From the NCBI GenBank assembly GCA_905160935.1, contig CAJHZI010000678.1, positions 1,613,001 to 1,677,000 on the forward strand: a stretch of DNA of 64,000 nt, read 5' to 3'. This document shows positions 1,179 through 63,772 of this stretch, piece after piece. The notes under the pieces were generated by a model. It saw nothing but the letters and a program-made list of their open reading frames with translations. It made no database searches and was not told the origin of the DNA. Position numbers and translations under genes: made by a program. Within the stretch, counting starts at the first letter, position 1, and each line of letters begins with the position of its first letter. The DNA is from Enchytraeus crypticus. Lineage: Eukaryota > Annelida > Clitellata > Enchytraeida > Enchytraeidae.

Positions 1179-2276
1179 CCAATAATCGCTGCACATATCA
1201 ATCAAGTTTCCTGTTCAGAGTAGGAAGGAAAGTCAAGGAAGAACTTGACACCTAAAGAACCGAATCTAAAAGCTTTAAAACATGTAAGATTGTAAGATAT
1301 GGCTCATAGTTAGCAAAAATAATAAATAAGATGACTTAAAATATGAATGATTACTAATTAAAATTTGTTTAGTTTCAAATATATTTCTCCAAAATTTTCA
1401 TTTCAGTTCTGTTGTAATTTACTAGTATGATTTGTATGTGCAGTTATGTTGTACGTTGCTATAGATCTAGTCTATAATAATTTCATAGGAAGTTAAAATG
1501 CTACAACTAAAGAAATTTAATTAAAATAAAATGCATGAATGCTTTGAATATATCAATCAATAGCAAGAAAATAACAAATCGGGCTTGTGGTACTGATAGG
1601 TAGAAATTACTTAAACTTAGCTTTTAAACAGGCAGGTCAAATATCTATTGATATAGAGTACGAGAGCATTATTGTCAATCTAACATATATTAGTTTTAGA
1701 GTTATTCATAATTTAAACATAATATTTTAATACCTGCATTTTGTCATATGAAAAACTCCTGCTAGTTTCATGATTTAATGATCCACTGAAATCTACCAAA
1801 ATTGTATACAAAAACTTAAATACACCAGAATTGCAAATAAAATGGAACAAATATGAAGAAACTGCATTAAAATATTAGCGCATATTATAAGGCATTCTAT
1901 TAGTATAATAGTATTATATTACAGGCATGTTATTAAAGGCAAATAGCTGGGGGGTGCTCCTGCAATCTTGGAGGCTTAGGTGAAATCCTACAAGATTATA
2001 TCAATTCACTTGCTAATTTTCTAACAACATCGATACTATTAACTTTGTTTAACACTTATATTCTTTACGAAAGCATGATATAGTATTAATTAATAAATTA
2101 ATAGATTAATTAATCTTAAACCTAATTTTAAAACTTCACACAAACTTTGTGTAACACTTGTATTTTTTACGGAAGCATGATATGTAATTAATTAATAAAT
2201 TAATAGATTAATTATCTTAAACCTAATTTTAAAACTTCACACGAATTAGAACATATGACGAAAACATTATACATAC
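1179..2276. other. AT-rich FIGNL1 intron with a two-copy tandem duplication
   Basis: No coding signal is visible; this is most likely the start of FIGNL1 intron 4. The stretch from about 2042 to 2145 is repeated at about 2146-2241, both copies containing GAAAGCATGATAT-like text and AAACCTAATTTTAAAACTTC. The second copy ends 35 bases from the exon 4 donor. 1179-2040 otherwise shows nothing recognisable. Confidence 0.7.
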
Positions 2277-2958
2277 TTCTAGGATTTCTAATACCGGAAG
2301 ACACTCCTTCTCTCTCTCGCATGTGCGGTAGGCTCACGTTCGTTCTGAAGAAATTACTCTGATTTAGCCCTTCCACTGGATTCATTCCAGGATTTGATTG
2401 ATTGGACACTTCCACAGGCTTATCCTGACACAGGCTCCAGAATGAATTCTGAGCAGCAGTTGAAGATAAATCACAGAGTGGGTTTTTAACTGGTCGACAT
2501 CCAGCTTTCTGATTCGGTTTCGTACTAACAGCAGCACTAGCAGACAAATTCTCTAAAGAATGTTTTGCAAGTCCAGTCATTTCAACTTCTGTCTTAACAG
2601 ATGCTAGTCCGTCGTAACAGGCACCGCTACCAATAGCTGATAAATTATTTCCCACGTGAGCAATGCCATTAGTTTGCACTTTAGATGCATTTGAATTTGA
2701 TTCATTCTCTCTGTAGACAACATTCCTATCTTTTACCATCACATCTTCTTTACTGTCAAAGAGCTTGGATGATAACTGACCACCTACAGCTTCTCTACTA
2801 GTACCCTGGTAATGCTTCAGATCTCGTCTCTCCTGCAGAGTATCTGCCGCTAGCATTGACTTGTTCGCCACTGGTTTCTCTGGTTTCACTGGTCCGTTTC
2901 GTTTCGTTGTTGGCTGATGGTCTTTACCAGCAGTACGGCATTCCCTCAACCGATATTC
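2277..2958 (-). CDS. FIGNL1: FIGNL1 exon 4 (disordered linker)
   Basis: 682-bp exon starting EYRLRECRTAGKDHQPT after a TTGTTAG acceptor and ending at GTATGT. Rich in Ser, Asn, Lys and Gln with no visible fold, as in the linker of fidgetin family members. The frame stays open to 2212 but the good donor at 2276 is the more likely end. Confidence 0.75.
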
Positions 2959-62800: not shown

Positions 62801-63580
62801 AGCAGGAGAATTTTCCTTAGCTAGTCTGAACACATCACGAACCATTCGAGGCCCTTCCCCGAGATACTTCTGCACAAATTCCGAGCCGACTACCCTTATG
62901 AAGGCGGCTGCAATAGATCAATCAATCCGCTAGTCAATCAATCAAACAAAACTGACTAATTTTGTATTTCATTGGTTTATTGAATATGTGTTTCTATATG
63001 AAATTATGTTGTGACTTTGAAATAGACTAACCAATAAGAAAACAAAAACTTTAAAAAAACTGCCATCCACTGCAATAACTGCGCTCACCTTCAAATAAGC
63101 ATATTTCAATATTGAAATATGCTGATTTGAAGGTGAGCGCAGTTATTGCAGTGGACGCTACTTAAGAAACCTAATGTTAACGTCAGTTTCCTCACTCGAA
63201 AGCGATGTCAGTGACGGGCGAGCTCAGGATTTGAACCCGCACATAGTGATCTACGGTCGAATATCTTACCGACATCGCAACTGGCTCCAGCCATTCATCG
63301 ACATACACTAACAAATTTGTCAAAACCAATGCTAGAAATAACGCTGTAGATCAGACGAAACAATACGAGCACTTACCGGTGGTATGATGGGCCACAGCCT
63401 TGGCCAGCATGGTCTTACCACAACCAGGCGGTCCAAACATGAGAACACCGCGTGGCGGATCTATGCCGATCTGCTTGTAGAGCTCAAAGTGAGTGAGAGG
63501 CAGCTCCACCGCCTCCCTCACCTCCTGCTTCTGTATGTCCATGCCTCCTATATCAGAGTACCGCACGTCCGGCTTCTCAT
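59779..63580 (-). CDS. PSMC4: 26S proteasome ATPase subunit Rpt3 (PSMC4), last five exons
   Basis: Exons 63580..63377, 62907..62740, 62076..62000, 61105..60881 and 59892..59779 join in frame to 261 residues, equal to the C-terminal part of human PSMC4 from about residue 157. Walker A GPPGCGKT, Walker B IIFIDEID, sensor [14 protein letters not shown], arginine-finger region [17 protein letters not shown] and a C-terminal EFYK (hydrophobic-Tyr-X) are all present. Rpt3 is one of six ATPases of the 19S base that unfold substrates and open the 20S gate. Sequence is almost identical to vertebrate Rpt3, apart from a changed C-terminal helix ([18 protein letters not shown]). The 5' exons lie right of the window. 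Nearly every intron has a tandem repeat at a splice site. Confidence 0.97.
59874..60170 (-). repeat. Tandemly repeated 3' splice site of PSMC4 last exon
   Basis: Five units of about 60-73 bp counting the real one. Each carries GCTGGCATGCAGGCTGTAC (minus strand, the start of the exon, with small changes) joined to an intron part rich in TTGATTGATTG. AG is intact before the copies at about 60028 and 60148, and lost at about 59965 and 60088. Confidence 0.95.
60431..60455 (-). mobile_element. tRNA-derived SINE (family 1), tail scrap
   Basis: AGCTAAGGTTAATGTCAGTT on the plus strand, the reverse of the family tail. Confidence 0.6.
60715..60862 (-). mobile_element. (GTT)n-tailed repeat, family D
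   Basis: Plus-strand AACAACAACAACAACAATTA, GAGTGCTACAGTCATCAATA. It ends about 20 bases from the exon donor at 60880. Confidence 0.85.
60881..61105 (-). CDS. PSMC4: PSMC4 exon (sensor and arginine fingers)
   Basis: Phase 0 in and out. [20 protein letters not shown] to [16 protein letters not shown], then GTAGGT. Confidence 0.97.
61106..61999 (-). other. PSMC4 intron
   Basis: A short (ATCA)n at 61117-61135 lies near the acceptor. A scrap at 61240-61310 resembles RTE-tail text (AGAGTACTCCATAGATCAA). Otherwise AT-rich. Confidence 0.5.
62000..62076 (-). CDS. PSMC4: PSMC4 exon (short)
   Basis: 77 bp, phase 1 in, phase 0 out. [20 protein letters not shown] then QTVNVK. Too short to show as an ORF. 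Confidence 0.96.
62077..62145 (-). repeat. (ACAGTTAACAC)n at a PSMC4 acceptor
   Basis: The unit GTTAACACACA recurs five times from the acceptor outward, and the AG of the splice site lies in the first unit. Confidence 0.8.
62385..62738. repeat. 20-bp minisatellite touching a PSMC4 donor
   Basis: About 17 units of GATAGATAACACATCATAGT or its ATT variant. The last, diverged unit (62719-62738, GATAGATAGCGTATCATACC) contains the splice donor on the minus strand. Confidence 0.95.
62740..62907 (-). CDS. PSMC4: PSMC4 exon (Walker B)
   Basis: Phase 1 in and out. [40 protein letters not shown]. Donor GTATGA is weak and lies in the minisatellite. Confidence 0.97.
63067..63154. repeat. 88-bp near-perfect palindrome
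   Basis: Arms of 44 bases meeting at CAATATTG, with one mismatch (AATAAGC against AATCAGC). It lies in a PSMC4 intron, 16 bases from a SINE. Confidence 0.95.
63170..63292 (-). mobile_element. tRNA-derived SINE (family 1)
   Basis: Minus strand: TTGCGATGTCGGTAAGATAT, GGTTCAAATCC, and the tail GAGGAAACTGACGTTAAC. Confidence 0.9.
63377..63580 (-). CDS. PSMC4: PSMC4 exon (Walker A)
   Basis: Phase 1 in and out. [40 protein letters not shown]. The donor is GTAAGT. The 5' edge is duplicated at 63668-63683. Confidence 0.97.
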
Positions 63581-63772
63581 CTACAGCACAATACAAAATA
63601 GTACAATACAGTACAGTACAATACTATTAAGTACAATAGTAGTAAAATAGTATTAAGTACAATTCTGACGTCCAGCTTCTCATCTACGACACAATACAAA
63701 ATAGTACAATACAGTTTAGTACAATACTATTAAGTACAACAGTACAATAGTAGTACAATGGTACAATAGTAT
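63565..63772 (-). repeat. Two-copy 103-bp tandem duplication over a PSMC4 3' splice site
   Basis: 63565-63667 and 63668-63770 align along their length. Both hold ATGAGAAGC(C/T)GGACGT preceded by TAG on the minus strand, so the second splice site is still plausible. Confidence 0.92.

What the first reader, a model, noticed from the sequence alone, without database searches (positions are those of the whole stretch)
2042..63772. Tandem repeats overlap intron-exon junctions in all three host genes
At least seven of about 50 splice sites lie inside or at the edge of a tandem repeat. Three copy a 3' splice site with 16-19 exon bases (receptor exon 2, PSMC4 last exon, PSMC4 exon at 63580). Others place a donor or acceptor in the outermost unit of a minisatellite (62738, 62077, 51048, 32732), and FIGNL1 exon 2 has an old degraded version. 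Slippage would rarely hit splice sites this often by chance. Possible causes are a repair process that copies junctions, tolerated decoy splice sites, or a route to new introns or alternative exon starts.
Basis: partly seen in the sequence, partly recalled or inferred. Interest (0 to 1): 0.85.

Follow-up and report, generated by a model that had tools for sequence, protein, structure and literature searches.

The report
Splice junctions copied by tandem repeats
In this worm genome short stretches of DNA are often copied side by side inside introns, and many copies take a splice junction and the edge of the exon with them; the same thing is known from lancelets, it does not look aimed at junctions, and it leaves decoy splice sites that the cell presumably ignores.

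Summary
The core observation is real. Three 3' splice sites in the window (receptor exon 2 at 31081; PSMC4 exons at 63580 and 59892) are copied upstream with 17, 16 and 19 exon bases. FIGNL1 shows only a weak old copy. The other cited sites are arrays beside a junction or degenerate.

The claimed excess is not supported. In the window 6 of 54 junctions lie within 20 bp of a repeat, against 6.1 expected. In 169 introns of 21 chosen genes, arrays cross 9 acceptors and 4 donors, against 9.7 each under uniform placement.

What is remarkable is how common it is: 33 of 169 acceptors and 12 of 169 donors have a local copy of the junction (control 0.8 per 338). Of the 33 best acceptor copies 29 keep AG, though use of 28 of these 29 would bring in a stop codon.

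This matches "mirages", described in lancelets. Mitochondrial gene order points to an annelid, a second phylum; my searches found no earlier annelid report. Two PSMC4 paralogues (dS 0.9 in the last exon) share one duplication breakpoint, so such arrays can be old.

Best explanation: untargeted tandem duplication in introns, tolerated because the exon-proximal site is used (RNA untested).

The parts
30854..31097 (+). Receptor intron 1/exon 2: about four 59-bp units, each a copy of the 3' splice site region plus exon bases (17 at most); the last unit is the real junction (exon starts at 31081)
   Evidence: TRF row 30854-31097; junction duplication D = 59, exon 17, AG kept; array crossing the acceptor
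59874..60165 (-). PSMC4 last intron/last exon: four intronic copies (60-72 bp apart) of the 3' splice site with 19 exon bases, plus the real junction (exon starts at 59892)
   Evidence: AG kept in 2 of 4 copies
63565..63755 (-). PSMC4 exon with acceptor at 63580: one upstream copy, 103 bp away, with 16 exon bases and an intact AG
62375..62739 (-). 20-bp minisatellite whose outermost, diverged unit reaches intron base 2 of the PSMC4 donor (exon 62740-62907)
   Evidence: p = 0.006; carries no exon bases
62080..62144 (-). Short repeat ending just upstream of the PSMC4 acceptor (exon starts at 62076)
   Evidence: adjacency only
32411..32729 (+). (GATT)n-rich tract ending just upstream of the receptor exon 4 acceptor (32733)
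   Evidence: adjacency only
51029..51145 (+). Receptor donor at 51048 followed by what look like degenerate copies of the exon end
   Evidence: 12/14 match, p = 0.05: inconclusive; rest by eye
5932..5992 (-). Old degraded copy of the FIGNL1 acceptor at 5469 (intron plus exon edge, AG lost)
   Evidence: 62-column alignment, p = 0.002; 15/20 exon edge; GG in place of AG; missed
2042..2246 (-). 102-bp two-copy duplication in the FIGNL1 intron, about 48 bp from the donor at 2295; does not cross the junction
   Evidence: Limits by eye; shift-102 identity 0.62 over 151 positions of the stretch 2042-2294, next best shift 0.43

Best explanation
The arrays are mirage-type tandem duplications. In the introns sampled from this annelid, segments of tens to a few hundred bases are duplicated head to tail without preference for splice junctions (shown in the sample). 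When the segment spans a junction, the intron gains one or more copies of the splice site plus some exon edge, while the outermost unit stays the working junction (shown anatomically, from gene models). The product is tolerated because the spliceosome keeps using the exon-proximal site, so the decoys are on the whole not removed (inferred; no RNA data). Unequal exchange or slippage then changes copy number and homogenises copies, so that exon edge and intronic copies evolve together (supported at one gene pair, PSMC4). Duplications reaching deep into the exon are rare, presumably through purifying selection.
For: Junction copies: 33 of 169 acceptors and 12 of 169 donors, control 0.8 per 338; at least one in 17 of 21 genes (my count). 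Exon-edge 20-mers copied in their own intron: 20 of 136 acceptors at 16/20 or better, against 0.07% in other introns and 0 in reverse complement. Second gene set: acceptors 23 of 98 introns in chaperonin genes, 6 of 34 in kinesins (tallied). No hot spot: 20-mers in the last 150 bp of introns have a nearby copy in 15-23% of cases, acceptor exon edges in 10.7%, falling to 0 by 60 bp into the exon; arrays cross 9 acceptors and 4 donors against 9.66 each expected. Unspliced DNA was copied: 50 of 59 acceptor copies also carry homologous intron flank. No general purge of decoys: AG lost in 6 of 50, about 10 expected, p = 0.21. PSMC4 paralogues share the breakpoint in 4 + 3 copies; at the base where the two exon edges differ, 3 of 4 and 3 of 3 copies match their own exon, at dS 0.90 in that exon.
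Against: Acceptors exceed donors 33:12 (p = 0.0025), and arrays cross donors less often than expected (4 against 9.66, p = 0.036), which a fully indifferent process with symmetric tolerance does not predict; but kinesins alone give 6:6. In the PSMC4 last introns 5 of 7 copies have lost AG, and decoys score below their real partners on average (p = 0.007), both hinting at decay or selection against decoys. The sample is 21 chosen genes, not random, and includes the finding's own genes (receptor, FIGNL1, PSMC4 and its paralogue: 37 of 169 introns). Splicing was not observed. The concerted-evolution evidence rests on one differing base.
Confidence: 0.82

Rival explanations
1. A repair or copying process acts preferentially on splice junctions, for example through R-loops or spliced RNA, and writes junction copies into introns.
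For: Very many junction copies, with more at acceptors than donors.
Against: Array crossings equal uniform expectation at acceptors and fall below it at donors; window test null; 50 of 59 copies contain intron flank, so the template was unspliced.
Confidence: 0.05
2. The copies are kept by selection because extra 3' splice sites tune splicing or make alternative exon starts.
For: The PSMC4 last-intron array is shared by two paralogues at dS 0.9; 44 of 50 copies keep AG; 25 of 33 decoys score above the 10th percentile of real acceptors.
Against: AG is not kept significantly more than flanking bases (p = 0.21); using a decoy would add a stop codon in 28 of 29 cases and lengths are in frame in only 11 of 29; in PSMC4 5 of 7 copies lost AG.
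Confidence: 0.1
3. Microsatellite slippage: sense-strand (ATTG)n tracts, common next to acceptors, seed the duplications and pull the junction along.
For: (ATTG)n lies within 60 bp of 39 of 169 acceptors against 8 of 169 intron middles and 1 of 169 donors; some units contain such tracts.
Against: Tracts within 150 bp are not significantly commoner at acceptors with junction copies (10 of 33) than without (30 of 136; p = 0.36).
Confidence: 0.1
4. Assembly or gene-model artefact.
For: Tandem arrays are prone to misassembly; my aligner admits only GT/GC-AG introns, so its junctions are not independent proof; one model end (chaperonin on C795) fell on a decoy and was dropped; first exons of some models are uncertain.
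Against: Junction copies in 17 of 21 genes on many contigs, with diverged copies; arrays in both PSMC4 paralogues; exon edges match conserved human proteins.
Confidence: 0.02

Closest known systems
[quoted passage not shown] PMC3087553 and PMC3902484, passages read)
   Same: Head-to-tail copies spanning a splice junction with part of the exon, at both 5' and 3' boundaries, units of tens to about 160 bp, cryptic AG/GT kept in many units, concerted evolution within an array.
   Different: Here in an annelid, measured over 169 introns, shared between paralogues, and not in excess of the general repeat density. Length polymorphism, somatic instability and undisturbed splicing, reported for lancelets, could not be tested.
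Intron gain by tandem genomic duplication (Rogers' proto-splice-site idea as cited in the passages of PMC3087553; potato RdRp case PMC4974935, seen only in the listing)
   Same: Tandem duplication carrying splice signals.
   Different: No new intron shown; existing junctions are copied and the copies stay intronic in the models.
Minisatellites in introns of earthworm metallothionein genes (PMC12783039, passages read)
   Same: Large tandem repeats inside annelid introns.
   Different: The passages read do not describe repeats that copy splice junctions; they mention unexplained duplications of a fourth exon in one clone.
Introners (PMC9860276, start of abstract in the listing only)
   Same: Repeated sequence associated with introns.
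   Different: Those are copies inserted into many genes; here copies are local and seldom found in the other introns sampled.

Membership tests
Mirage (lancelet-type exon-intron boundary minisatellite) | Tandem repeat unit spans an exon-intron boundary | tested here: met
   45 of 338 junctions, 3 of them in the window
Mirage (lancelet-type exon-intron boundary minisatellite) | Both 5' and 3' boundaries can be duplicated | tested here: met
   33 acceptors and 12 donors; none of these donors lies in the window
Mirage (lancelet-type exon-intron boundary minisatellite) | Minisatellite-sized unit | tested here: met
   50 arrays: median unit 42 bp, 10-90% range 25-76; distance of best junction copy 37-387 bp
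Mirage (lancelet-type exon-intron boundary minisatellite) | Concerted evolution within the array | tested here: met
   PSMC4 paralogues: 3 of 4 and 3 of 3 copies match their own exon at the one differing base, at dS 0.90; one locus pair only
Mirage (lancelet-type exon-intron boundary minisatellite) | Regular splicing is not disturbed | not testable with these tools
   No RNA data
Mirage (lancelet-type exon-intron boundary minisatellite) | Length polymorphism or somatic instability | not testable with these tools
   One assembly, no reads
Intron gain by tandem duplication | A novel intron bounded by the duplicated segments | not tested
   No outgroup intron positions at hand
Introner | Dispersed near-identical copies in introns of many genes | tested here: not met
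   Exon edges against 20 other introns each (0.07% at 16/20) and 20-mers against one random other intron each (0-1.4%); sampled introns only

The most novel reading that the evidence does not exclude
Junction-copying tandem duplication is a genome-wide, long-lasting feature of an annelid, arisen independently of lancelets. About one 3' splice site in five has a nearby copy of itself, mostly with an intact AG, which the spliceosome passes over by position alone, and exon edges and intronic arrays evolve in concert. This would make such genomes a natural test of how one of several near-identical splice sites is chosen, and a standing supply of material for new introns and exons.
Probability: 0.4. 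Interest if true: 0.7.

Novelty: new member of a known kind. Interest (0 to 1): 0.5.

Why it matters
In the papers I saw, mirages are reported for a handful of lancelet genes. Finding them as a common feature in an annelid suggests that the phenomenon is not a cephalochordate oddity and gives a first rate. It offers many natural experiments in which near-identical splice sites compete, and a place to look for introns born from tandem duplication. It also warns that gene prediction in such genomes may pick decoy junctions.

Tried and rejected
Rejected: excess of repeats at junctions (profile); copying from spliced RNA; (ATTG)n tracts as the main driver (p = 0.36); purge of decoy AGs as a general rule (PSMC4 differs); a lancelet source. 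The acceptor excess over donors (33:12) is not seen in kinesins (6:6), so I do not build on it; first against last 200 intron bases gave p = 0.07 (145 introns), and array midpoints show no 3' bias (29 of 50 in the 3' half, p = 0.32). Unit ends of 15 young two-copy duplications were looked at for microhomology and left open.

Dropped or not used: the last exon of the chaperonin on C795, placed on a decoy (one intron), before (it was); low-complexity 20-mers and low-complexity units.

Literature: searches showed no annelid paper on junction-copying repeats. Only listings were seen except for the five papers named (passages); 12 of 74 and 12 of 14 papers were listed; one earthworm genome paper (PMC12130307) was not opened. 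The library holds open-licence papers only, and the original lancelet Adh paper did not appear in one search.

Full report
WHAT IS THERE. The window is C582:1613001-1677000 of a 524 Mb assembly in 802 contigs. It holds the end of PSMC4 on the minus strand (exons 63377-63580, 62740-62907, 62000-62076, 60881-61105, 59782-59892), a 19-exon receptor on the plus strand with LDL-receptor class B and EGF-like matches, and the first exons of FIGNL1 on the minus strand. I count 54 junctions. Three acceptors are truly copied with exon bases: 31081 (59-bp spacing, 17 bases), 63580 (103 bp, 16 bases) and 59892 (about 60 bp, 19 bases). The remaining sites of the finding are arrays beside a junction (62739, 62077, 32733), one inconclusive donor (51048, p = 0.05) and one weak old copy in FIGNL1 (p = 0.002 for the whole stretch; the exon edge alone matched best elsewhere).

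IS IT MORE THAN CHANCE? Two questions must be kept apart. Do the copies arise by sequence coincidence? No. I modelled nine chaperonin genes, eight kinesin motor regions, a second PSMC4 gene and the three window genes, with a spliced aligner except for the receptor and parts of FIGNL1: 169 introns of 21 genes. The aligner admits only GT/GC-AG introns. Junction duplications are found at 33 of 169 acceptors and 12 of 169 donors; with the exon end swapped for another gene's, 0.8 per 338 junctions. By gene set (tallied, intron numbers): chaperonins 23 acceptors and 3 donors in 98 introns; kinesins 6 and 6 in 34; the PSMC4 pair 3 and 3 in 15; receptor 1 and 0 in 18; FIGNL1 0 and 0 in 4. At least one is found in 17 of the 21 genes. 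An earlier test on 136 introns gave 20 acceptors with at least 16 of 20 exon-edge bases copied, against 0.07% in other introns and none in reverse complement; for donors 4 of 135.

Do repeats prefer junctions? No. In the window 6 of 54 junctions lie within 20 bp of an array against 6.1 on circular shift, and 2 of 54 lie inside one against 4.3; the eleven other settings of the same call also show no excess. In the sample, 50 arrays lie in 35 of 169 introns; they cross 9 acceptors and 4 donors where uniform placement predicts 9.66 each (donor deficit p = 0.036). Local duplication runs through the introns: 15-23% of 20-mers in the last 150 bp and 7-14% in the first 150 bp have a copy nearby, acceptor exon edges 10.7%, donor exon edges 4.8%, falling to zero by 60 bp into the exon, with controls of 0-1.4%. 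The junction is hit because it lies at the end of a heavily duplicated stretch.

WHAT THE COPIES LOOK LIKE. Of 59 acceptor copies found by exon edge alone, 50 also carry homologous intron flank, so unspliced DNA was duplicated. Among these 50 the AG is lost in 6 where the flank mismatch rate predicts 10 (p = 0.21): no general selection against decoys is seen. Decoy context is weaker than the real partner on average (5.2 against 7.7, p = 0.007), but 25 of 33 reach the 10th percentile of real acceptors and 13 of 33 equal or exceed their partner. Using a decoy would bring in a stop codon, in the added piece or the next 60 exon bases, in 28 of 29 AG-keeping cases; 11 of 29 have a length divisible by three. 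So these are often strong-looking sites that must mostly be ignored. That last step is inferred, as no RNA was available.

AGE AND TURNOVER. A second PSMC4 gene lies on C429, open over residues 16-418 of the human protein. The paralogues differ at dS 0.75 overall and 0.90 in the last exon; exons 4 and 5 are much closer (0.27, 0.12), which suggests gene conversion there; exons 3 and 6 are saturated. In the stretch compared, alignments cover exons and the array but little other intron. Yet both last introns carry the array, and all 4 + 3 copies share the same sequence junction after the exon bases. At the one base where the two exon edges differ, 3 of 4 and 3 of 3 copies match their own exon. 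The duplication is therefore probably older than the split, or was shared by conversion, and has been homogenised since. In these two arrays 5 of 7 copies have lost the AG, unlike the general pattern.

WHICH ANIMAL. Contig C802 holds mitochondrial genes. Around cox1 the order is nad3, an NADH subunit of the antiporter family taken as nad2, cox1, cox2, a 55-residue frame without a Pfam match taken as atp8, and cox3. PMC2639372 (passages) describes nad3 between nad1 and nad2 as a change that seems restricted to annelids and their kin, and PMC4866719 (passages) describes the order as conserved in most annelids examined. I saw nad3 beside nad2 but not nad1. I did not place the animal more finely.

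WHAT IS KNOWN. [quoted passage not shown] The globin paper reports both boundaries, kept splice signals, undisturbed mRNA, concerted evolution, and a model for intron gain. The features tested here agree; RNA and polymorphism could not be tested. I found no report of this for an annelid in the listings, within a library of open-licence papers.

VERDICT. The finding is a real and, for an annelid, apparently unreported case of a known kind.

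Noticed in passing
39 of 169 sampled introns, last 60 bp; in the window also the GATT tract at 32411-32729 and PSMC4 introns: Sense-strand (ATTG)n microsatellites sit just upstream of acceptors: 39 of 169, against 8 of 169 intron middles and 1 of 169 donors; the reverse complement is at 0 acceptors and 4 or 5 donors. TTGAT fits the branch-site pattern yUnAy (recalled), so these may be arrays of branch points.
   Followed up: partly
C429:636014-643295 (L010, L009): A second PSMC4 gene, 88% identical in coding DNA, with much lower divergence in exons 4-5 and identical intron bases after the donor of exon 4, as if by recent gene conversion.
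   Followed up: partly
window 7759-12699, minus strand: An open frame of 1646 residues with a reverse transcriptase domain: a LINE-like element.
   Followed up: partly
window about 42149-44485, plus strand: What looks like a second retroelement, ending in a run of 71 A; its 507-residue frame gave no Pfam match.
   Followed up: no
window about 6330-6460, 17950-18080, 19735-19860, 49040-49160: A short dispersed repeat with a tRNA-like box (a probable SINE), recognised by eye in introns and between genes.
   Followed up: no
C795:1225001-1235000 (L014), last modelled exon: The spliced aligner placed the last exon on what looks like a decoy copy, an example of how such repeats could mislead gene prediction.
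   Followed up: partly
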